From positions 1 to 61,691 of the forward strand of contig NZ_JABWGQ010000050.1 in NCBI RefSeq assembly GCF_014595975.1: a DNA stretch of 61,691 nucleotides, given 5' to 3'. The notes beneath the pieces are model-generated. The model made no database searches. It saw nothing but the letters and a program-made list of their open reading frames with translations, and was not told the origin of the DNA. The position numbers and the translations under genes were made by a program. The stretch comes from Sphingopyxis sp. LK2115 (GTDB taxonomy: Bacteria > Pseudomonadota > Alphaproteobacteria > Sphingomonadales > Sphingomonadaceae). Below, piece after piece: positions 8,112 through 18,857 of this stretch. Position 1 is the first letter of the stretch; the number at the start of each line of letters is the position of its first letter.

Positions 8112-9464
8112 ATGATGGCTTCGCTCTGGTTCGAACGCGCGTGGATCGGCAATCGGTGGGAAAAGGACGTGCGGCTCCGCATCGCGGACGGGCGGATTGC
8201 GGGGATCGAAACCGACCTTGCGGCGGCGGCGGGCGAAGAGCGCCACCGCGCCGCGCTGCCCGGCCTCTGCAACGTTCACAGCCACGGTTTCCAGCGCGGT
8301 ATGGCAGGGCTTTCGGAACGCCGCAGCCGCCCGGACGACAATTTCTGGAGCTGGCGCGAGATCATGTACCGCTTCCTCGACCGGCTGACGCCCCGGGATG
8401 TCGCGGCGATCACCGCGCAGGCCTATGTCGAGATGCTCGAAGGCGGCTTCACGCGCGTCGGCGAGTTCCACTATCTCCACCACGATCCCGCGGGCGCGCC
8501 CTATGCCGATCCGGCCGAGATGGCGGGCGCGATCGCAGAGGCGAGCGCGGCAACGGGCATCGGCCTGACGCTGCTGCCCGTCTTTTACGCGCATGGCAAT
8601 TTCGGCGCGGTGCCGCCGAGCCACGGCCAGCGGCGTTTCCTGAACGACATCGACGGCTTTGCGGCGCTGATCGACGCGTCGCGGGCAAAGCTTGGCGGCG
8701 ACGCCAATATCGGCGTTGCCCCGCATTCGCTGCGCGCGGTAACGCCCGGCGAACTGGCGGCGTTGCTTGAATTATCGCCCAGCGGGCCGGTGCATATCCA
8801 TGCCGCCGAGCAGGTAAGGGAAGTTGCCGATTGCGTCGCGTGGAGCGGCGCGCGGCCGGTCGAATGGTTGCTGGACAACGCCGGGGTCGATGAACGCTGG
8901 TGCCTGATTCATGCGACCCATCTCGACGAAAGCGAAGTGCTTCGCCTTGCCGCCAGCGGTGCGGTGGCGGGGCTTTGCCCGATCACCGAAGCGAATCTTG
9001 GTGACGGCATCTTTCCGGCGACCGATTATCTTGCGGCGGGCGGGCGCTTCGGGGTTGGCACCGACAGCAATATATGGATCGATGCGGCGGGCGAACTGCG
9101 CGCGCTGGAATATTCACAGCGGCTGGCGCATCGCGCGCGGGCGCTGTTGGCGGATGACGCCGCGCCCTTCGTCGGCGCCAATCTGTTCGGCCGTGCGCTC
9201 CACGGCGGCGCGCAGGCGCTCGGCGTGCCCGCGGGGCTTGCCGTCGGCCAGGCCGCCGACATCGTGTCGCTCGACCTCGATCATCCCGCCTTTGCCGGGG
9301 CCGACGATGCGACGCTGCTCGACCGCTGGATCTTTGCGGCGCGTGGCGGGGTGATCGATTGCGTGTGGCGCGCGGGCGAAAAGCGCGTCGAAAAGGGCCG
9401 CCATGTCGCGGCGGCGGCTATCGCCTCTGCCTATCGCACCTGCCTCGACCGGCTGCTGGCATGA
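8112..9464 (+). CDS. hutF: Formimidoylglutamate deiminase
   Basis: A 450-aa amidohydrolase of the HutF type, converting N-formimidoyl-L-glutamate to N-formyl-L-glutamate and ammonia. Visible motifs are [11 protein letters not shown] (metal-binding HxH), [18 protein letters not shown], the VHIHAAEQ region and GTDSNIWID (metal-binding Asp). A start at 8115, the second of two adjacent ATG codons, is equally possible; GAGG lies 6-9 bases upstream. It feeds HutG encoded in the opposite operon, and its stop overlaps the hutC start. Confidence 0.94.
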
Positions 9465-10141
9465 ACCCCGCGCGGCGCATCCGCGACGAAATCGCCGCCG
9501 CGATCCGCTCGGGCGAATGGCGCCCCGGGGACCGCGTGCCGACCGAACAGGAACTGGCCGCGCGCCATGGCTGCGCGCGCGCGACGGTGAGCAAGGCGCT
9601 GGGCGAACTCGCCGCAGCGGGGCTGGTCGAGCGCCGCCGCAAGGCGGGCACATTTGTGGCGCACCCGCCGGTCCATTCGGCGGTGATGGCGGTGCCCGAC
9701 CTTGCCGAACTGATCGCCGCGCGGGGTGAAGTCTATCGCTGGTCGCTGAAGGCGATGCGCATCGAAACGGACGGGGTGGCGCAGTGCCCGCCGCCTGCGC
9801 TGCGCGTTGAGGGTATGCATTTCGCGGCCGGCGAAGCGTTCGCGCTGGAAACGCGCTTCATCGCGCTCGACGAGGTGCCCGACGCGGCGAATGCCGACTT
9901 TCGGGCGGAAGCGCCCGGCACCTGGCTGCTTGGCCATATACCATGGACCGAGGCGCGCCATGTGATCCGGGCGGTCACGCCGACGCGGATCGAGGCGGCG
10001 CAACTCGGCGTGGCGACGCGCGCCGCCTGCCTTGAGCTCGATCGCACCACCTGGCGCGCCGGCCGCGTCGTCACTCACGTCCGGCAACTGTTCCGCGGCG
10101 ACCGTTTCGACCTCGTCGCCGAGTTCAACGCCGGGACGTGA
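9461..10141 (+). CDS. hutC: Histidine utilisation repressor (GntR family, HutC type)
   Basis: A 226-aa GntR-family regulator. Residues 1-70 form the winged helix-turn-helix (RVPTEQELAARHGCARATVSKAL, then RRKAGTFV), and from about residue 80 to the end is a UTRA ligand-binding domain. The ATG overlaps the hutF TGA (ATGA), giving a co-translated pair. Its position strongly suggests it represses the whole hut locus from the palindrome at 8084-8101 and is released by urocanate. It would also regulate itself. Confidence 0.92.
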   Translation: MNPARRIRDEIAAAIRSGEWRPGDRVPTEQELAARHGCARATVSKALGELAAAGLVERRRKAGTFVAHPPVHSAVMAVPDLAELIAARGEVYRWSLKAMRIETDGVAQCPPPALRVEGMHFAAGEAFALETRFIALDEVPDAANADFRAEAPGTWLLGHIPWTEARHVIRAVTPTRIEAAQLGVATRAACLELDRTTWRAGRVVTHVRQLFRGDRFDLVAEFNAGT

Positions 10142-10282
10142 CCGGGCGGCCGTGCGGCGAGGTGGCAAGCGGGGGCAATCATCGATTAACCACGTCCGGC
10201 AACGCAACGGAAATCTTTATTACCGACTGTTAGCAAAACAGAAAATGCCTGGGTCGCGTCCGTTGCTTGCAGGAGACGACAC

Positions 10283-10855
10283 GTGGCAGAGTCAAAATCA
10301 TCCACTTCGGTGGCCGCCCGCCTCGATGCGATCGAGGCACAGATCAAGCAGATCATTGAAGCGCTTCACGGTTCGGGCGGCGTGTCCGGGCCTTCGACGA
10401 CGATCGAACTCACCGGCGAGGAACTCGACAAGATCGGCGATGCGCTGGAAGACCTTGACAGCCGCCTGACCGATCGACAGCGGCTTTATTTTCTCGGCAT
10501 TTTGGGAGCGGCGGCGCATCATTTCCAGCAGGTGCTGGCAACCGAGGGGCCGTCGATCGAGAATATCCGCACGATCAAGGTCGCCAATGCGGCGCGCATC
10601 CGCGATGTTAAACTGTCCGACGCTTTCCAGGGGCTTACCAAGGTCGAGCAGGGCCGGCTCGGCAGTATCCTGTCACCTGGAGGCGATGTGATGGATTCGG
10701 TCGGTGTGGGCGTTGGCGTCGCCTGCGTCGGCGTCGACTGGTCGAAGGATCTGGCGACCGACCAGCTCGGCGGATGGCGCACCAACCCGGCCTTTGGCGG
10801 TGCGGTCGTCAATCCGGGGCCGTTGGGCGGCCTGCCTGGGGGATTCGGGCGTTAA
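10283..10855 (+). CDS. Putative RiPP precursor protein with Gly-rich C-terminal core
   Basis: A 190-aa protein of no family I know, starting with GTG behind a good AGGAGA site (10271-10276). Residues 1-28 and 44-85 look helical (DAIEAQIKQIIEAL; GEELDKIGDALEDL; LTDRQRLYFLGILGAAAHHF) and would act as a long leader. From about residue 131 the character changes: SPGGD, a GVGVGVACVGVDW run with the only Cys at 148, Trp at 153 and 165, Phe at 171 and 188, and a Gly/Pro-rich end (PLGGLPGGFGR). That leader-plus-low-complexity-tail layout, followed 15 bases later by two radical SAM genes, a YcaO gene, an oxygenase and a protease, argues for a modified substrate. It could also be a scaffold protein; the role is inferred from context. 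Confidence 0.7.
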   Translation: MAESKSSTSVAARLDAIEAQIKQIIEALHGSGGVSGPSTTIELTGEELDKIGDALEDLDSRLTDRQRLYFLGILGAAAHHFQQVLATEGPSIENIRTIKVANAARIRDVKLSDAFQGLTKVEQGRLGSILSPGGDVMDSVGVGVGVACVGVDWSKDLATDQLGGWRTNPAFGGAVVNPGPLGGLPGGFGR

Positions 10856-10870
10856 GCCGGACGGTTCGAC

Positions 10871-12772
10871 ATGAACGCCCCCGTCAAAAGGCCGCGCCGC
10901 CGAGCGGCCGCCGCGGAGGAGGCTGCGCCAGAGGCGAAGGAAGCGGCGTCGGCGCGATCGGTTCATTCGATCGCGCTGGTCGCCGCCCCCTTCAACTCCT
11001 TTCGCCGCCCCTCGATCCAGGTCGGCCTGCTCGCCGCGATCGCACGCCAGTGCGGCTGGACTGCGCGAACGCACCATCTGTTCCTCGATTTTGCGGTGAT
11101 GATCGGCAGCGAATTTTACGAACGCATCGCCAATGATCGCGGCGTGGCGGTGGGCGACTGGCTGTTTTCGGTCGAGGCTTTCGGTCCCGATGCGCCCGAT
11201 GGCGACGGACGCGCGATGCTCGCGGCTTTCGATCTCAAGGACGCCGAGCAATTGTTGATCGTGCGGCGCGATGTCGTGCCGCGCTTCGTCCGGCTGGCGG
11301 CCGAAGAGATTGCGCGATCGAACCCAACGGTCGTCGGTTTTACCTCGACCTTTCAACAGACCGCGGCGGCGATTGCGATTGCCCGGCGGCTGCGATCGAT
11401 GCTGCCGCGCGCGCGCTTCCTGTTCGGCGGCGCCAATTTCGAGCGTGACATGGCGGCCGAATGGATCGCGCATGTCCCCGAGGTCGAATTGGTGCTGAGC
11501 GGCGAGGCCGATGACAGCTTTCCGGCGCTGCTGCGTGCCATTGACGCGGGCGAGGGGATTGATCGCGTCGCTGGACTGAGCTGGCGCGACGATGACGGGA
11601 CGGTGCGGCAGAACAAGCCCGCGAAGATGATCACCGCGCTCGACCGCAATCCGACCCCCGATTACGCCGAATATTTCGATCGCGCCGAATATCTGGGCCT
11701 CGTCCGGACCGGACTGCGCAACGACGTCCGCATCCCCTTTGAAAGCGCGCGCGGATGCTGGTGGGGCGAGCATAGCCACTGCGTCTTTTGCGGGCTCAAC
11801 GCGCTGACGATGAAGTTCCGGTCCAAGTCGCCTGACCGGGTGTGGACCGAGCTTGCCGAACTTGCCGAGAGGCATCGAAGTTATCATTTCGAGGCTGTCG
11901 ATAACATCGTCGACCGCGATTACCGCGGCGCGCTGTTGCCCAGGCTGTCGGCGGCGGATGCGACCTACGACATTTTCTATGAGGTCAAGTCGAACCTGAA
12001 ACCCGACGAGATTCGCGATCTGGCAGATGCGGGAATCCGCACAATCCAGCCCGGAATCGAAAGCCTGTCGACCCCGGTGCTGAAACTGATGCGCAAAGGC
12101 GTGCGCGGGCTTGACAATGTCAACCTGCTGCGCTGGTCGGCCCATTATGGCGTCGCGGTGAGCTGGAACGTGCTGTGGGGCTTTCCGGGCGAGAAAGCCG
12201 AATATTATGCCGAACAGGCGGACTTGTTCCGCCATCTGCACCATTTGCAGCCACCCTCGGCGGGGCTGCGCGTATGGCTCGAACGCTATAGTCCGTTGTT
12301 CAAGGACGAAGCGAGCTTTCCCAAGACATCCCGCAAGCCCGAACGCTCGCTCGACTTTATCGTGCCCGCGCGGATCGACAAGGAGGCAATTGCCTATTTC
12401 TTTGAATATGAACTGGAAAACACGCTGGCCGACCACGATTTCGACAGCATGGCCGAGGCGATCGGCGTCTGGAAAGAGGCGTGGATGCGCGGTTGGCGCC
12501 CGCAACTGCGCTATTTCTCGTCGCCCGGTGTCGTCACCGTCGAGGACAGCCGCCACGCGCCCGAACCGCGGCTGACGCGCCTCACCGGACGCGACGCGCG
12601 CATTTTCCAGGCGCTGCTTGAAAAGCCGCTGAGCGCCGGGCGTGTCGCCGAGCTGATCGACGAACCGCTCCAGCGCGTCGAGCGCTCGCTGCGCCTGCTG
12701 AGCCATGAAGGGCTGATCGCGAGCGAAGGCGGGCTGCACCTGTCGCTGCCATTGCCGGCACGGCGGCGATGA
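10871..12772 (+). CDS. RiPP maturation radical SAM protein (B12-binding type, C-x7-C-x2-C)
   Basis: A 633-aa protein with an N-terminal cobalamin-binding-like domain (residues 31-230; VVGFTSTFQQTAAAIAIARRL, then LFGGANFE and LVLSGEAD) and a radical SAM domain from about residue 285. The [4Fe-4S] cluster motif is C296-x7-C304-x2-C307 within RGCWWGEHSHCVFCGLN, not the usual C-x3-C-x2-C. This spaced motif marks the family known as ribosomal peptide maturation radical SAM protein 1. The last 70 residues (RLTGRDARIFQALLEKPL on) look like a winged helix, perhaps for leader binding. Relatives act on ribosomal peptides; C-methylation or another radical change on the core is possible, but the reaction cannot be told from sequence. 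Its end overlaps the next gene by 4 bases. Confidence 0.85.
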   Translation: MNAPVKRPRRRAAAAEEAAPEAKEAASARSVHSIALVAAPFNSFRRPSIQVGLLAAIARQCGWTARTHHLFLDFAVMIGSEFYERIANDRGVAVGDWLFSVEAFGPDAPDGDGRAMLAAFDLKDAEQLLIVRRDVVPRFVRLAAEEIARSNPTVVGFTSTFQQTAAAIAIARRLRSMLPRARFLFGGANFERDMAAEWIAHVPEVELVLSGEADDSFPALLRAIDAGEGIDRVAGLSWRDDDGTVRQNKPAKMITALDRNPTPDYAEYFDRAEYLGLVRTGLRNDVRIPFESARGCWWGEHSHCVFCGLNALTMKFRSKSPDRVWTELAELAERHRSYHFEAVDNIVDRDYRGALLPRLSAADATYDIFYEVKSNLKPDEIRDLADAGIRTIQPGIESLSTPVLKLMRKGVRGLDNVNLLRWSAHYGVAVSWNVLWGFPGEKAEYYAEQADLFRHLHHLQPPSAGLRVWLERYSPLFKDEASFPKTSRKPERSLDFIVPARIDKEAIAYFFEYELENTLADHDFDSMAEAIGVWKEAWMRGWRPQLRYFSSPGVVTVEDSRHAPEPRLTRLTGRDARIFQALLEKPLSAGRVAELIDEPLQRVERSLRLLSHEGLIASEGGLHLSLPLPARRR

Positions 12773-14307
12773 ACGTCGCCGTGACCGGGACCGCCGCGGC
12801 GGGGATCGACGGCGTTACCGTCGAACGGCTGGCCGCGACCCTGCGACCGGAGGATGATGCGGTCGCGGCGCTGCTGCTCGATCGCGCGCGCTCGCTCCTG
12901 GCCTTCCTGCGAGCCGGTGCGTCGGTGCCGCTGCTTGCCGCCCCGACAGGTGCGCTGCCCGCCGACGTGCGGCAGGCGCTCCGCGCCAGGCCCGGCCTGC
13001 GCGCGGGGACGAGTAACGGCGCCGCCGCGCTGGCCGCGCTGGAGGCGACGCGGCGACGGCTGCGCGCACGGCTGTCCCCCGGCGAAGCAGGAGCATTCGA
13101 CCAGCTGGTCCATCTGGGTGCCGCACCCGCCAGCGGACTGGCGATGATTCCCGCGCCCGCGCTCGGCCTTGCCGACCCCGCCTTTGCGGCCGCCGAACCG
13201 GCCGAACCGGCCGCGCCGCCGACGGGCTTTGCCGACCTCGTGCTGATCGCGAAGCTGACCCGCCATTGCAATTTGCGCTGCACCTATTGCACCGACTGGC
13301 GCGAAGGGCCGGGGAACCAGATGACCCCGGCGACGCAGGCGCTGATGGTGCGCCGTGTCGCCGAGGACCGGTCGATCGCGGCGGCGCGTTTCATCTGGCA
13401 CGGCGGTGAACCCAGCCTGATCGGCGTGCGCAAGATGCTCGGCTTTCTGTGGTTGCAGGCGCGGCTGCGACGGCCGGGGCAGATATTTGCCAATTCGATC
13501 CAGACCAACGCCGCTGCGCTGCCCGACCGCGCGGTCGCGCTCTGGCGGCTGTTCGACTTCAAGGTCAGTGTCAGCCTCGACGGACCGCGCGCCATCCACG
13601 ACCGCCAGCGACGCACGGCGCGCGGAGGCGCATCGTTCGATGCCGTCATCGACGGGATCGCGCGGCTGCGCGAGGCGGGTATCTTTGCCGGGGTGCTGAT
13701 CGTCGTGACGCCGGAAATCGCGGCCTATCCGATCGAAAGGCTGGTCGGCGAACTGGTCGATGCGGGTGTCCACGCAGCGGGTTTCCTGCCCGTGCGGCCC
13801 GATGCGGGGACCGGTAAGGGCCCCTATCTGCCGCCCGCCGCTTTTTCGGATTTCCTGATCCGTCTGTTCGACCTGCTCCGCACACGCCCCGACCTGCGCT
13901 TCGACGTCCGCGAGATCGACGCGCTGCACGCGGCATGGCAGCGACGGCCGACGGGCTTTTGCGAGCTCAACGGCCCCTGCCTTGGCGGTTATTTCGGGAT
14001 CGAACCCGACGGCACGGTGCGCCACTGCGACAAGTTCCTGGGGTCGGCAAGCCACGCGCTCGGCAATCTGGCCGAGCGCAGCCTTGCCGATATCCGCGCA
14101 AGCGCCGGGATGGCGGCGCTGAAGCAGCGCGAGGCCGAACGCTGGCTGCGGCTGCGGTCGTGCGCCTGGTATGGGCATTGCAAAGGCTGGTGTCCGCACG
14201 AGAGCCATATCGCCGCACTGCGCGGCGAGACTGCGCGCTGTTGTGGGCTGGCCCCGGTGTTCGATCATTTCGCGGCGCTCGCGACCGCCGAAAGGCTGAG
14301 CGCATGA
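12769..14307 (+). CDS. Radical SAM/SPASM peptide-modifying enzyme
   Basis: A 512-aa protein. Residues 1-155 form an Ala-rich helical region I cannot assign. The radical SAM core begins at 156 with a canonical C167-x3-C171-x2-C174 motif (RHCNLRCTYC), then WHGGEPSL, the SAM-binding GGEP motif, and VSLDGPRAIHD. The C-terminus carries SPASM-type cysteines (GPCLGGYFGIEPDGTVRHCDKF, then SCAWYGHCKGWCPHE and RCC) for auxiliary Fe-S clusters. Enzymes of this build form C-C, thioether or cyclophane links in peptides, often on aromatic residues; the precursor tail offers Trp and Phe. Starts and stops overlap both neighbours in ATGA fashion. Confidence 0.85.
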   Translation: MNVAVTGTAAAGIDGVTVERLAATLRPEDDAVAALLLDRARSLLAFLRAGASVPLLAAPTGALPADVRQALRARPGLRAGTSNGAAALAALEATRRRLRARLSPGEAGAFDQLVHLGAAPASGLAMIPAPALGLADPAFAAAEPAEPAAPPTGFADLVLIAKLTRHCNLRCTYCTDWREGPGNQMTPATQALMVRRVAEDRSIAAARFIWHGGEPSLIGVRKMLGFLWLQARLRRPGQIFANSIQTNAAALPDRAVALWRLFDFKVSVSLDGPRAIHDRQRRTARGGASFDAVIDGIARLREAGIFAGVLIVVTPEIAAYPIERLVGELVDAGVHAAGFLPVRPDAGTGKGPYLPPAAFSDFLIRLFDLLRTRPDLRFDVREIDALHAAWQRRPTGFCELNGPCLGGYFGIEPDGTVRHCDKFLGSASHALGNLAERSLADIRASAGMAALKQREAERWLRLRSCAWYGHCKGWCPHESHIAALRGETARCCGLAPVFDHFAALATAERLSA

Positions 14308-15329
14308 GTGCGGCCGCAATTGCCTGCCATGCCTGTGCCGCCGCGCGCCGCGCCTCGCTCGGCGTGGCCGCTGCGCCGCGCGGCGCGTTGCTCGCGCTTC
14401 CGGGCTGCGCCTGCCAGACGCTGCCCTCGGGCGAACGACGCAAGCGGCTGCTCGTCCCCGGCGCCGGGCCGCTCGCCGAACTGTCGGCACGCTATTTCGC
14501 CGAGGTCCGGCATTGGGTCGCGGTGGCCAAAGGGTGCGACGTGCGTGCGCTGGGAGCGGCCGCCGACGTCGCGCTGGGGCTTGGCGCGGGATGGCGACGC
14601 TGCGACGCGGCGGCGCGCGCGACCGGCGAGATGCTCGAACGCTATGGCGCCGCGCTGGTGCCGCCGGGAAGCGGCGCACGCGTTGTGCTGACCGACTGGC
14701 GCGGGGCGGTGTGCGGCGACGGACCGGCGGCGGCGGCGTGGCTGCCCTATCACCGGCACGGGCGTCCAGCGCTTCCCGCGTCGTCGACGGGACTCGGCTT
14801 TGCGTTCGACCGCAATCGCGCGCTGCGCGCCGCGGCGCACGAGATGATCGAACGAAGCGCGATCGACACGCTGGCGCGGGACGGGGCGCGCCGTGCAAAG
14901 CCGTTGGGTCCGGTGCGCATCGGCAAGGTTTCGGGGCATGGCTTTCACATCGCGGCGCCATTGCCCGTCGCGCTGGTGCTGGTCGCCGACGGGAGCGGCC
15001 GGATCGTAGCGGCCGGGGCGGCGGCCAGGACCGGAATCGATGCGGCGCTGATCGCGGCGCGGCGCGAGGCGGCGCTTGGCTGGCTTGTCGCGCAGGGTCG
15101 GGTGCTGCCGGGCGCGGGGCTGGATGGCGCGGGCCTGCTGGGGCCGCTCGCCGACCTTCCGCTGTCCGAATGGCCCGTGGCGCGGCGCCGCGGCGCCGTG
15201 GAGCCGCCTTTGTCACCGCGCGGGGCGTTGACGCGCCGCTTCGCATTCGCCGACCTGACGCCGGGCGACATCGCGGCGGCGGGCGGATGGGTCGTGCGCG
15301 CGATGGAAAGGACGGCCGCCGATGCTTGA
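14304..15329 (+). CDS. Divergent YcaO-like protein with Cys-rich N-terminus
   Basis: A 341-aa protein that I assign to the YcaO superfamily from two motifs. One is ARATGEMLERYGA at 104-116 (cf. A-x-x-E-A-x-E-R-Y). The other is SSTGLGFAFDRNRALRAAAH followed by EMIERSA (160-186), matching the S-x-x-G-x-A...E-x-x-E-R nucleotide-binding stretch. YcaO proteins use ATP to activate peptide backbone amides, making azolines, thioamides or amidines. Residues 8-37 hold C8-x2-C11 and C35-x-C37, which might bind zinc or a leader. It lacks the Pro-rich C-terminus of azoline-forming YcaOs, and no TfuA-type partner is encoded nearby. Activity is uncertain, but the fold and the setting agree. Confidence 0.68.
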   Translation: MSAAAIACHACAAARRASLGVAAAPRGALLALPGCACQTLPSGERRKRLLVPGAGPLAELSARYFAEVRHWVAVAKGCDVRALGAAADVALGLGAGWRRCDAAARATGEMLERYGAALVPPGSGARVVLTDWRGAVCGDGPAAAAWLPYHRHGRPALPASSTGLGFAFDRNRALRAAAHEMIERSAIDTLARDGARRAKPLGPVRIGKVSGHGFHIAAPLPVALVLVADGSGRIVAAGAAARTGIDAALIAARREAALGWLVAQGRVLPGAGLDGAGLLGPLADLPLSEWPVARRRGAVEPPLSPRGALTRRFAFADLTPGDIAAAGGWVVRAMERTAADA

Positions 15330-16338
15330 CATGGTGCCGCCGCACGCCACCGATCGGGTACGGTTGCTTTGCGGCAGCGATGCGCGCGCCGTCGCCCCGC
15401 TGCTCGACGCGGCCGCGTCGGCGGTTGAGGTCGCCGCAGGCGTGCGCCTGCTGCGCGGTGGCGGGGCGGTCTGGCGCGGGCAACCACGAGCGGTCGCCAG
15501 GCGGCTCGCGGCCGCGCTGCGACCCCGGCCCGACCGCGACGAGATACGCGCGTTCGACAGCCGCGCGGGCGCCGTCACCGCGCGCCATCTGGGCGAAGCC
15601 GTCGTCGACGCCGACCGCGTGGGCGACACGATCGACAGCGGCGGCACCGTCGTGTTCCAGAAGGTCGACAGCCTTGATTTCCACTGGCACCGGCTGGCGC
15701 GCGCATTCGAGGGGGCGACGCGCCAGCCCGCCCAGATCAATGTCTATGCGGGCGCACCGGGCGCACCGGGACTGGAATGGCATCGCGACCCGCACGATGT
15801 GCTGATCCTGCAATTGGCGGGCGCCAAGATTTTCGCGGTCGAGCGCGATGCGGGCGCCGCCGACATCGCGCTCGCCCCCAGCGACCTGTTGTGGCTGAGC
15901 CGCGGCGTCGGCCATCGTGCGACGAACGGCGCCGCGGGATCTATCCATGCCTCGCTTGGCCTGCTCCACTGGATGCGCGACGCGATGGCGGTGCCGGTCA
16001 TCGACCGGCGGCCGCTGGCTTCGCCGGTCGCCCGCTGTCGGCTGAGCGTCGAAGAGCGCGGCGCCGCGCTGCTCGGTTGGCGCCCGTTTCGCAAGCTGCC
16101 CCCCGACGTGGCCGACGGCGAGCTTCTGCGGCCCGACCTGCTCGCGCTGATCCATCTCGCGCGGCGCGAGTCCATTCTCGATCTTGGCGGGTTTCGCCGC
16201 GCGTTGGGCGGCGAGGAGGCAAGGATGATCGAAGCGGGGCTTTGTCCGCCGAGCCTGCGGCAATGGCTCGGAACCCGTTTGAGGCCGGTGCGCGTCCTGG
16301 CCGACCTGATCGCGCCGCTGGATCCCGGAGAAACATGA
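15322..16338 (+). CDS. JmjC/cupin-like 2-oxoglutarate oxygenase
   Basis: A 338-aa protein of the JmjC-type cupin group (related to the ribosomal oxygenases). The iron-binding H-x-D is at 154-156 in GLEWHRDPHDVLILQLAGAKIF, with Lys169 placed to bind 2-oxoglutarate. A distal His follows in LWLSRGVGHRATN (H198), with H209 as alternative. The C-terminal 110 residues look like a helical or winged-helix addition (LRPDLLALIHLARRE). In this operon it most likely hydroxylates the peptide or a partner. It overlaps the YcaO gene by 8 bases and the protease start by 4, so it is made in step with them. Confidence 0.75.
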   Translation: MLDMVPPHATDRVRLLCGSDARAVAPLLDAAASAVEVAAGVRLLRGGGAVWRGQPRAVARRLAAALRPRPDRDEIRAFDSRAGAVTARHLGEAVVDADRVGDTIDSGGTVVFQKVDSLDFHWHRLARAFEGATRQPAQINVYAGAPGAPGLEWHRDPHDVLILQLAGAKIFAVERDAGAADIALAPSDLLWLSRGVGHRATNGAAGSIHASLGLLHWMRDAMAVPVIDRRPLASPVARCRLSVEERGAALLGWRPFRKLPPDVADGELLRPDLLALIHLARRESILDLGGFRRALGGEEARMIEAGLCPPSLRQWLGTRLRPVRVLADLIAPLDPGET

Positions 16339-17282
16339 TGCGAAGCGACGATCGTTCCCGCTGCCTGCTCGATCTCGTCCGGCGAGACCGGCCCCGCTGG
16401 TTGCAGCAAGGCCGGACGATCGCGCGGCGCGAAGTGACGAAGGCGCAGGAATCGGTGGGCGCCACCGGAATCGGGCAGGACGAACTGGTTGCGCTGACCG
16501 AACGCCTCTCGCCCGAACTGCCCGCCGCCGCGCTGTCGCCGGGCGAGGTTGATACGCTGGAGGCGATCGTCCACACCGAATTGCGCCCCGCGCTGCTGGT
16601 GCAGGACGGCACCTTTTTGCCGCCGCCGGAAGAATGGCGGCATCTTGAAACCTATCGCGCGGGGATCGACCGGGCGATTGCGCGGACATGCCGCATCGAA
16701 ACGGAGGGCGGCATCGCGCTCGACTGGGTCGGCACCGGCTTTGTCGTCGCGCCCGACCTCGTCGCGACCAATCGCCATGTTGTGCAGGAGTTCGCGTCCC
16801 ACGAGCCCGGCCGCGGCTGGCGCATCCACGACGGTGTCACGGTGCGCGCCGATTTCCGGCAGGAGATCGGCAGCACCGCGGTCGCCGATGTGCCGGTGAC
16901 GGGTATCTGGGGTGTCCATGATCGCTTCGACATCGCCATCCTGCAGATGCGACCCGGCCTGTGTCCCAGCCCGATCCCGGCGGGCCTCGCCAATCTGGCG
17001 GCGCAGCGTGATGTCGTGGTCATCGGCTATCCCGCCTATGACTCGCGACGGAATGACGCCGCCGTCATGGACCGCATCTTTCGCGGCATCTATAATGTGA
17101 AGCGCGTGCAGCCGGGGCGGATCATGCTGCGCGACACCGCCAATTACCTGCTGCGCCACGACAGCTCGACGCTCGGCGGCAATTCGGGATCGCCGGTGAT
17201 CGACGTTCGGACCGGTCGTCTGATCGGCATTCACTTTCGCGGGCAATATCTGCGCTGGAACGACGCCGTCGACATTTCCTGA
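16335..17282 (+). CDS. Trypsin-like serine protease, last gene of the RiPP operon
   Basis: A 315-aa protein whose C-terminal two thirds is a chymotrypsin-fold protease. The catalytic triad is visible: His148 in DLVATNRHVV, Asp199 in RFDIAIL and Ser284 in GGNSGSPV. The first 120 residues are a helical region without a signal peptide or membrane segment, so it is probably cytoplasmic. The operon setting suggests it removes the leader of the 190-aa precursor or trims the product, a role more often filled by C39 or other peptidases. An adjacent ATG at 16338 could also be used; GGAG lies upstream of both. Confidence 0.82.
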   Translation: MMRSDDRSRCLLDLVRRDRPRWLQQGRTIARREVTKAQESVGATGIGQDELVALTERLSPELPAAALSPGEVDTLEAIVHTELRPALLVQDGTFLPPPEEWRHLETYRAGIDRAIARTCRIETEGGIALDWVGTGFVVAPDLVATNRHVVQEFASHEPGRGWRIHDGVTVRADFRQEIGSTAVADVPVTGIWGVHDRFDIAILQMRPGLCPSPIPAGLANLAAQRDVVVIGYPAYDSRRNDAAVMDRIFRGIYNVKRVQPGRIMLRDTANYLLRHDSSTLGGNSGSPVIDVRTGRLIGIHFRGQYLRWNDAVDIS

Positions 17283-17359
17283 CCGATCGCGCATAAATGG
17301 GATCCCCGGCAATCGACGGCTGCCGCGGTGACCGCCCCGTCGCGAAAGTCGCTCGCGGG

Positions 17360-17373
17360 TTGACGCGGATCAA
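17360..17373. promoter_or_regulatory. FNR-type box upstream of the universal stress protein
   Basis: TTGACGCGGATCAA differs by one base from the FNR consensus TTGAT-N4-ATCAA and lies 53-66 bases before the stress-protein start. TATGAT at 17377-17382 could serve as a -10 element, but its spacing to the box is unusual, so the true start is unclear. Universal stress proteins of alphaproteobacteria are often under low-oxygen FnrL control. Confidence 0.6.
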
Positions 17374-17426
17374 TGATATGATCCCGCAAAATGATCCAAT
17401 CTCATCCCCTCGCAGGAGACTGGACG

Positions 17427-18236
17427 ATGAAGAATATCCTCGTTCACGCCGCGGGCGACGAAGGCTTGACCACGCGGATCGAAAGCGCGCTGGCGATCGG
17501 CCGCCGCTTTGGCTCGCATCTCAGCTTTCTGATCAGCTCGCCCTATCAGCAATTTATCGCAGCCGATCCGTTCGGCGGCGTCTATCTGGCGAAAGAGCAG
17601 CTGGCGCAGGCCCAGATCGCCGATGCCGAGCTGGAACAGCGACTGCGCGCCGAACTCGAGCGCGAGGATGTGCCATGGGATGTCGCGGTGGCGGACGGCG
17701 ATGCGTTGTCGACGATGGCGCTCGCCGCGACGCTGGCCGATCTTTCCCTTGTCTCGCTTGACACGTCCGACCGGCGAGGGCGGCATGCGTCGACCATCGC
17801 CGGCGACCTGGCGCTTACGGTCCCGGTGCCGGTCCTCGCGCTGCCCGCCGACGCCCCGCCGATCGACCTCGATGCGCCGGTGATGGTGGCGTGGAACGGC
17901 AGCCCGCAGGCGGCGAGTGCGCTGCGCGCCGGCGTTGCGCTGATGCGCGACGCCGCTTCGGTCACGCTGGTAACGGTTGGCGACGACGACGGCCGCGTCG
18001 CGGCGGAGGATGCGCTGCGCTATATGTCGCGGCACGGCGTCCATGGCGAGCTGCGCCGCGAGGCGAAGGGAATGGATGCTTCCGAAGAAGTGCTGGTGCG
18101 CGTTGCTGACGAGATCGGCGCCGGGCTGGTCGTCATGGGCGCCTTTGGCCGGTCGCGGCTGCGCGAAACATTGTTCGGCGGCGTCACGCGCTTCATGCTC
18201 GACGTCGCGCCCGCGCCCCTGCTGCTCATGCACTAG
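17427..18236 (+). CDS. Universal stress protein (tandem UspA-like domains)
   Basis: A 269-aa protein with two UspA folds in tandem. The second is the better preserved, with PVMVAWNGSPQAASALR at its start and the nucleotide-binding GAFGRSRLRETLFGGVTR (G-x2-G-x9-G-S/T type) near the end. The first (MKNILVHAAGDEG...) keeps the fold but has lost the glycine loop. The ATG at 17427 is placed behind GCAGGAGAC. Such proteins bind ATP and support survival under starvation or low oxygen; the FNR-type box upstream fits that. It is followed by IS debris and tRNA-Asn, so it probably stands alone. Confidence 0.88.
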   Translation: MKNILVHAAGDEGLTTRIESALAIGRRFGSHLSFLISSPYQQFIAADPFGGVYLAKEQLAQAQIADAELEQRLRAELEREDVPWDVAVADGDALSTMALAATLADLSLVSLDTSDRRGRHASTIAGDLALTVPVPVLALPADAPPIDLDAPVMVAWNGSPQAASALRAGVALMRDAASVTLVTVGDDDGRVAAEDALRYMSRHGVHGELRREAKGMDASEEVLVRVADEIGAGLVVMGAFGRSRLRETLFGGVTRFMLDVAPAPLLLMH

Positions 18237-18322
18237 GACCGATCGACATTCAGGGGATTCCCAAAGCGGGAGATGCCTGATTCATAGGACTCCGCCTTTG
18301 CGGAGGGACTCGTGGGATCAAG

Positions 18323-18743
18323 CGATACGCGCTGAGCGAAGCGCAGTGGCAGCGGATCGAGCCGCTGTCGCCGGGCAACGCCTGCTATCCGCGACGGACG
18401 GCTTCGGACAACCGGTTGTTTGTAAACGGCGTGTTCCGGGTTTTGCGGTCCGGCGCCCGCTGGTCGGACCTGCCCGAACGCTGCGGCAAGCCGAGTCGGC
18501 GTGCAATCGCTTCACCCGCCGGGCGCGCGCGGGCGTCTGGGCGCGAATGTTCGCCGTGCTGGCCCGCGACTGCGACAATGGCTAGCTGACGATCGACAGC
18601 TCGATCGTCCGCGCCCATGCCCAGGCCGCAGCTGCCCAAAAAGGGTGCACACGACCAGGCTTTTGGGGCGCTGCCGAGGAGGATTGACGTCGAAGTGGCC
18701 TATCGCAGCCGACAGCTTCGGCCGCCCCGTGCGCTTCATCCTG
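18323..18743 (+). pseudogene. Decayed IS5-family transposase
   Basis: Pieces of an IS5-group (DUF4096 type) transposase are spread over the three forward frames. RYALSEAQWQRIEPL and DNRLFVNGVFRVLRSGARW, then SDLPERCGK, lie in one frame; RFTRRARAGVWARMFAVLA and LTIDSSIVRAHAQAA in a second; GGLTSKWPIAADSFGRPVRFIL in a third. At least two frameshifts and an in-frame TAG (before LTIDS) kill it. The catalytic DDE region downstream is missing. The 80 bases before it (18240-18320) resemble the leader of such elements, but I cannot define terminal repeats or target duplications. Confidence 0.8.
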
Positions 18744-18782
18744 ATCGTCAGAAGGCGGAACGCCGCACAATGGCAAGGAAAA

Positions 18783-18857
18783 TGGCTCCCCGGGCAGGAT
18801 TCGAACCTGCGACCAATCGATTAACAGTCGATTGCTCTACCGCTGAGCTACCGAGGA
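18783..18857 (-). tRNA. tRNA-Asn (GTT)
   Basis: The reverse strand folds into a standard cloverleaf: acceptor TCCTCGG pairing with CCGGGGA, D-arm GCTCAGCGGTAGAGC, anticodon loop CTGTTAA with anticodon GTT, T-arm GCAGG-TTCGAAT-CCTGC, discriminator G and encoded CCA. The encoded CCA is at 18785-18783. IS debris lies just beyond its 3' end, a common place for integration. Confidence 0.97.

What the first reader, a model, noticed from the sequence alone, without database searches (positions are those of the whole stretch)
10283..17282. Six-gene operon that looks like an undescribed RiPP pathway
Putative precursor, B12-type radical SAM (C-x7-C-x2-C), SPASM radical SAM, YcaO-like protein, JmjC-like oxygenase and trypsin-like protease follow one another with 4-8-base overlaps after the first gap of 15 bases. 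Four different peptide-modifying chemistries on one substrate would be exceptional, and I know of no characterised pathway with this set. The motifs are seen; that they act on the precursor is inferred.
Basis: partly seen in the sequence, partly recalled or inferred. Interest (0 to 1): 0.93.

Follow-up and report, generated by a model that had tools for sequence, protein, structure and literature searches.

The report
Five-enzyme RiPP operon, near-invariant core
Six overlapping bacterial genes, kept together in distant species, encode one small protein with a nearly unchanging tail plus five enzymes that would likely methylate, cross-link, ring-close or thioamidate, hydroxylate and then cut that tail into an unknown peptide.

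Summary
Six genes lie at 10283-17282 with one 15-base gap, then overlaps of 4, 4, 8 and 4 bases. B is a B12 radical-SAM C-methyltransferase (TIGR03975, 692 bits, cut-off 282). C is a SPASM radical SAM related to the darobactin synthase DarE. D has the YcaO fold. E is a JmjC oxygenase with an intact HxD...H triad. F is a V8-like serine protease. All six occur in the same order in two same-genus genomes and in an alphaproteobacterium of another family; a Polyangiaceae MAG has five, without the JmjC gene. Among 80 genomes of the genus, close relatives of A, B, E and F occur only in the three carriers. A looks like a RiPP precursor: its tail holds three islands nearly invariant in 18 relatives, with Trp153 and Lys155 (WSK) in 18 of 18, as in darobactin's WNWSKSF. 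The tail shows no amino-acid change against 4 and 17 synonymous changes in the two same-genus relatives. I read it as a new RiPP class whose fixed core hints at a conserved function rather than a diversifying antibiotic. All chemistry is inferred.

The parts
10283..10855 (+). gene A: RiPP precursor, 190 aa; leader about 1-137, predicted core 138-190
   Evidence: 18 aligned sequences; model mostly helical in 11-119 (pLDDT over 70 only around 41-70), pLDDT under 50 from 120 to the end; tail islands near-invariant; dN/dS 0.02-0.03
10694..10750 (+). island 1 of the core (residues 138-156): DSVGVGVGVACVGVDWSKD; likely site of Val methylation, of YcaO action at Cys148 and of a Trp153-Lys155 cross-link
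   Evidence: mean pairwise identity 0.83; V144, V146, G150, W153, K155 in 18 of 18, C148 in 17 (Ser in L039). Chemistry inferred
10775..10795 (+). island 2 (residues 165-171): WRTNPAF; candidate JmjC target
   Evidence: identity 0.92; Arg166 in 17 of 18, Gln in L039, which lacks the JmjC gene. Target inferred
10826..10852 (+). island 3 (residues 182-190): C-terminal GGLPGGFGR, role unknown (recognition follower or product end)
   Evidence: identity 0.86; G183, P185, G186, F188, R190 in 18 of 18
10871..12772 (+). gene B: B12-dependent radical SAM C-methyltransferase, rSAM_ocin_1 family
   Evidence: TIGR03975 691.7 bits (cut-off 281.85); C-x7-C-x2-C at 296; sub-threshold B12-binding and winged-helix matches
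12769..14307 (+). gene C: radical SAM/SPASM maturase, DarE/DarW-like
   Evidence: DarW 250.7, DarE 193.4 bits (both cut-offs 650, not met); 29% identity to a DarE over 356 columns
14304..15329 (+). gene D: stand-alone YcaO with an N-terminal CxxC...CxC segment
15322..16338 (+). gene E: JmjC (ROX-type) oxygenase; H154, D156, H198
   Evidence: PF08007 37.2 bits; triad invariant in 4 of 4; relatives include an L16 3-hydroxylase, MINA and NO66
16335..17282 (+). gene F: V8/glutamyl-endopeptidase-like serine protease, candidate leader peptidase; H148, D199, S284
   Evidence: Trypsin_2; best PDB matches are glutamyl endopeptidases (6e-6), followed by a MarP-type protease
17391..18236 (+). Usp-domain gene in the same variable block in the genus; part in the pathway not shown
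   Evidence: Usp 56.0 bits; homology to both same-genus carriers runs through it and ends at 18237 and 18251

Best explanation
The operon encodes a 190-residue precursor whose predicted-disordered, near-invariant C-terminal tail is likely modified by four co-encoded enzymes and then would be cut from its leader by the co-encoded V8-like protease, giving what is likely a RiPP of a new class. B likely puts methyl groups on Cbeta of valines in SVGVGVGVACVGV, as the Cx7Cx2C enzyme PoyC does. C likely joins Trp153 to Lys155 by a C-C bond, as DarE does in WNWSKSF; the darobactin ether is not expected because its first Trp is Val here. D would make a thiazoline at Cys148 (Ser in one lineage) or a thioamide on a nearby glycine. 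E would hydroxylate WRTNPAF, most likely Arg166. F would cut after Asp138. Shown: gene order, families, folds, triads, conservation and purifying selection. Inferred: every reaction and every site.
For: Gene set and order kept in G002, G038 and G495, five of six in L039. Close relatives of A, B, E and F in the same 3 of 80 genus genomes, own included. Tail conservation 0.69 against 0.45 for the leader, islands 0.83-0.92; zero nonsynonymous against 4 and 17 synonymous changes in the tail. Tail modelled without structure. W153 and K155 in 18 of 18; C's nearest named kinds are DarW and DarE, 29% to a DarE, whose DarA ends in WNWSKSF; WSK turned up in 300 of 200,000 shuffles of the tail. B is TIGR03975 with the motif given for PoyC (PMC11285071, passages). 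D has the YcaO fold; position 148 is always Cys or Ser. E keeps its triad; of the five loci that I read, the one without E is the one with Gln for Arg166. F matches glutamyl endopeptidases, and Asp138 is kept in 17 of 18.
Against: No product or mass is known. A matches no NCBIfam family and no RRE was found by the Pfam and NCBIfam scans. In the DarE paper, a Phe in place of the first Trp left only a +16 Da mark on the second Trp and no ether (PMC9055067); +16 alone leaves no room for the Lys bond, so DarE may need that Trp, and C would have to differ from it. C and D pass no named maturase cut-off. D has no TOMM or TfuA partner among the six genes. The E-Arg166 link rests on one locus whose tail has diverged elsewhere too. 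The A model is poor (mean pLDDT 48.9, 18 sequences), so disorder is a weak inference. The strongly kept tail also fits a modified protein that is never released. F also resembles MarP-type proteases and has a 130-residue N-terminal extension. The three genus carriers share one site and count as one event.
Confidence: 0.63

Rival explanations
1. A is not a peptide precursor but a protein whose tail becomes a permanent, modified functional site, as McrA of methanogens carries YcaO-made thioglycine and radical-SAM methylations (recalled). F would be a quality-control or activating protease, and nothing is released.
For: The tail is more conserved than the leader and has no amino-acid change in two genome comparisons; the nearest folds to D are methanogen YcaOs; no exporter or immunity gene was seen by eye among the ORFs at 6.9-20.8 kb of the window, and none is kept among the loci.
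Against: The tail models without structure and is split by variable spacers (0.33, 0.37), which suits a cut-out peptide; the protease gene is kept in all five loci that I read; L039 has an exporter-like ABC gene about 1.5 kb downstream of F (by eye).
Confidence: 0.2
2. A defence or conflict module in which the protease F is the effector and the modified tail is its inhibitor, sensor or bait.
For: F carries about 130 residues before its protease domain, aligned from residue 1 or 2 in the other four loci, of a kind that I recall from conflict-system trypsins; the operon is patchy, 3 of 80 genus genomes.
Against: Four peptide-modifying enzymes are excessive for a bait; no relative of A on viral contigs or plasmids. 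No PADLOC scan was run, so other defence genes nearby are not excluded.
Confidence: 0.06
3. A diversifying antibiotic RiPP of the darobactin kind, aimed at the outer membrane.
For: The C gene and the WSK motif resemble DarE and DarA; missing DarBCD exporter genes do not exclude it, since one class of daropeptide clusters also lacks them (PMC9055067).
Against: The core hardly changes over large distances; the first Trp of the darobactin core is Val in 17 of 18 and Gly in 1.
Confidence: 0.08

Closest known systems
Darobactin / daropeptides (DarA-DarE)
   Same: C is of the DarE/DarW kind, with the same CNLRCTYC motif that the paper quotes for DarE; the precursor carries (N/D)WSK in most relatives, with W and K invariant.
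   Different: 29% identity and below the family cut-offs; Val instead of the first Trp; 190-aa precursor instead of 55 in the DarA that I read; added B12 radical SAM, YcaO, JmjC and protease; no DarBCD genes among the six.
Polytheonamide-type proteusins (PoyC, Cbeta-methylation of Val)
   Same: B12 radical SAM with the Cx7Cx2C motif and a Val-rich core (PMC11285071, passages).
   Different: The leader matches no family above cut-off in NCBIfam or Pfam; a SPASM radical SAM and a YcaO are present.
Bottromycins
   Same: Radical SAM C-methyltransferases acting on Phe, Val and Pro (PMC11285071, passages) and YcaO enzymes (a reference title seen; otherwise recalled).
   Different: The N-terminus of the bottromycin precursor is the core (PMC5103208, start of abstract); as far as I recall no SPASM or JmjC gene.
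Biphenomycin-like pbs/bpm clusters
   Same: B12 radical SAM, a JmjC- or cupin-type protein and several chemistries on one peptide (PMC12257519, passages).
   Different: MNIO and arginase instead of YcaO and SPASM; core motif FHAFRF; the cupin-type protein PbsQ gave no further modification in the co-expression reported there.
ROX-type JmjC hydroxylases (YcfD, MINA, NO66)
   Same: PF08007, HxD...H triad, relatives named as protein hydroxylases.
   Different: Encoded in a RiPP-like operon; C-terminal region not matched; target unknown.

Membership tests
RiPP pathway | ribosomal precursor with leader and core encoded beside dedicated modifying enzymes | tested here: met
   the leader-core border is inferred
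RiPP pathway | enzymatic modification of the core and a released product | not testable with these tools
   needs expression and mass spectrometry
rSAM_ocin_1 C-methyltransferases (TIGR03975) | score above the curated cut-off over the whole model | tested here: met
   691.7 against 281.85 bits, profile 1-606 of 606
Daropeptides | maturase passes the DarE (NF038005) or DarW (NF041300) cut-off | tested here: not met
   193.4 and 250.7 bits, both cut-offs 650
Daropeptides | core with two aromatic residues two apart (WxW, WxF or WxY) for the ether cross-link | tested here: not met
   residue 151 is Val in 17 of 18 and Gly in 1
Daropeptides | Trp-x-Lys/Arg pair for the C-C cross-link (bicyclic classes) | tested here: met
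   W153 and K155 in 18 of 18; whether the bond forms is untested
YcaO superfamily | YcaO fold | tested here: met
   8 of 18 relatives carry PF02624; D alone is below Pfam's cut-off
TOMM azoline pathways | SagD-type YcaO above cut-off or an E1-like partner gene | tested here: not met
   SagD model 27.5 against 219.25 bits; no such partner among the six genes
Thioamide pathways | TfuA partner beside YcaO | tested here: not met
   None among the six genes; TfuA-independent YcaOs are known to me from recall only
Proteusins | nitrile-hydratase-like leader | tested here: not met
   no NCBIfam match for A up to E 0.1; only sub-threshold, unrelated Pfam hits
ROX/JmjC_2 oxygenases | PF08007 above cut-off with HxD...H iron ligands | tested here: met

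The most novel reading that the evidence does not exclude
The product is not an antibiotic but a conserved, RiPP-derived cofactor or signal: a ladder of methylated valines ending in a Trp-Lys cyclophane, with a thiazoline or thioamide and a hydroxylated arginine, made by five enzymes on a core that evolution has hardly allowed to change, and shared between Alphaproteobacteria and Myxococcota.
Probability: 0.26. Interest if true: 0.9.

Novelty: new variant of a known kind. Interest (0 to 1): 0.73.

Why it matters
If true, it is a RiPP class that joins B12 C-methylation, a DarE-like Trp-Lys cross-link, YcaO chemistry and JmjC hydroxylation on one substrate, with proposed target residues for four enzymes that can be tested one by one in E. 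coli. A core kept nearly fixed between phyla would make the product itself the object of strong purifying selection, as for cofactor precursors (recalled: PQQ, mycofactocin), and so a lead to a new conserved small molecule.

Full report
Observation. The starts of D (14304) and F (16335) are internal ATGs chosen by overlap and homology. The precursor gene starts with GTG behind a GGAG. HutC lies upstream (9461-10141) and a Usp-domain gene downstream (17391-18236).

The precursor. A has 17 hits among 5.8 billion proteins. Sixteen of these plus the window and L039 make the alignment of 18 (P0010 dropped). The model is mostly helical in 11-119, with pLDDT over 70 only around 41-70, and under 50 from 120 to the end; its mean is 48.9, so the missing structure of the tail is a weak inference. 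Mean pairwise identity is 0.45 for residues 1-137 and 0.69 for 138-190. Three islands reach 0.83 (DSVGVGVGVACVGVDWSKD), 0.92 (WRTNPAF) and 0.86 (GGLPGGFGR), between spacers of 0.33 and 0.37. In 18 of 18: V144, V146, G150, W153, K155, W165, T167, A170, G183, P185, G186, F188, R190; in 17 of 18, among others, D138, C148, D152 and R166. Against G002 and G038, A has the lowest dN/dS of the six genes (0.021 and 0.031), with no nonsynonymous change in the tail against 4 and 17 synonymous ones.

The darobactin link. DarA of Vibrio crassostreae ends AWNWSKSF, and the window has GVDWSKDL. WSK appears in 300 of 200,000 shuffles of the window's tail. DarE makes the Trp-Trp ether and the Trp-Lys C-C bond (PMC9055067: abstract, passages and part 1 of section 8). 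Here the place of the first Trp is Val (17) or Gly (1), so at most the Trp-Lys bond is expected. Against a simple transfer: in that paper a Phe in place of the first Trp gave a +16 Da mark on the second Trp and no ether, which leaves no room for the Lys bond either. C would then have to act without the first Trp, unlike DarE.

Distribution. All six in the same order: G002 and G038 (same genus; A 98.9% and 96.3% identical) and G495 (another family of the class; A 58%, B 65%, C 62%, D 44%, E 47% over 171 columns, F 60%). L039, a Polyangiaceae MAG contig of 15,273 bases, has A, B, C, D and F and no E. A was found in 3 of 80 genus genomes and 2 of 385 in a draw from the class, the own genome counted in both. 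C at 85% or more: 2 of 59 other genus genomes, with remote matches (37% or less) in seven more. Strong matches to D: 2 of 396 in a draw from the order, own included. B, E and F: the same three of 80; other hits were weak (B 34% or less in three genomes, E 37% or less in 16, F 33% or less in 19). Equal longest-contig lengths pair 5 of 17 A hits and 7 of 18 D hits with E hits, a hint only; the five A hits so paired have WRT(N/Y)PAF. The operon lies directly after hutC: in 22 of 22 hutC loci of non-carriers that I compared, each reaching about 1,500 bases past hutC, homology to the window ends at 10126-10157, while both carriers run on to 18237 and 18251, through the Usp gene. The three genus carriers are thus one event.

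How it likely works. The leader would be the docking part. B likely methylates valines in the VG ladder, and its winged-helix-like region (571-619, sub-threshold) may hold the leader. D would act at Cys148, Cys in 17 and Ser in 1, or on a glycine. C likely closes Trp153 to Lys155. E likely hydroxylates Arg166: of the five loci that I read, the one without E has Gln there, a single case on a tail that has diverged elsewhere too. F would cut after Asp138. No exporter, immunity gene or regulator beside HutC was seen by eye among the ORFs at 6.9-20.8 kb (only A to F, HutC and Usp were scanned against libraries). The flanks differ between the window, L039 and G495; L039 has an exporter-like ABC gene about 1.5 kb downstream. 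With the fixed core this points, weakly, away from a diversifying antibiotic.

What is new. In nine PMC searches (some lists capped) no listed title or abstract start names this set. The one paper with radical SAM, YcaO, JmjC and RiPP (PMC12710340, passages) notes that bacterial JmjC relatives appear in RiPP-like contexts. The review of leader proteases (PMC10885120, term search) has no hit for trypsin-like, glutamyl, Glu-C, chymotrypsin or S1 family. Multi-chemistry RiPPs exist (PMC12257519, passages), so the kind is known and the variant is new.

Noticed in passing
L011 901-3926 (G019); also G036 and G035 by coordinates: Another candidate RiPP cluster in the same genus: a 183-aa precursor-like ORF with Gly/Asn/Tyr repeats, a SPASM radical SAM and a ROX-type JmjC gene side by side. 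SPASM plus JmjC may be a recurring pair.
   Followed up: partly
L086 1423-4716 (G836): A B12 radical SAM 34% identical to gene B (CWWG...CxxC motif) next to, on the other strand, what look by eye like lasso-peptide genes (PqqD-like, leader-protease-like, asparagine-synthase-like).
   Followed up: no
window 10150-18857: The operon and a Usp gene form a block after hutC; homology to the two carriers ends about 530 bases before a tRNA-Asn gene (18783-18857, minus strand), as in an island.
   Followed up: partly
L039 13812-15257: Beside the Polyangiaceae copy, a minus-strand protein with a hydrophobic repeat region and a nuclease- or toxin-like C-terminus, followed by a small gene that could be its partner; only looked at by eye.
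   Followed up: no
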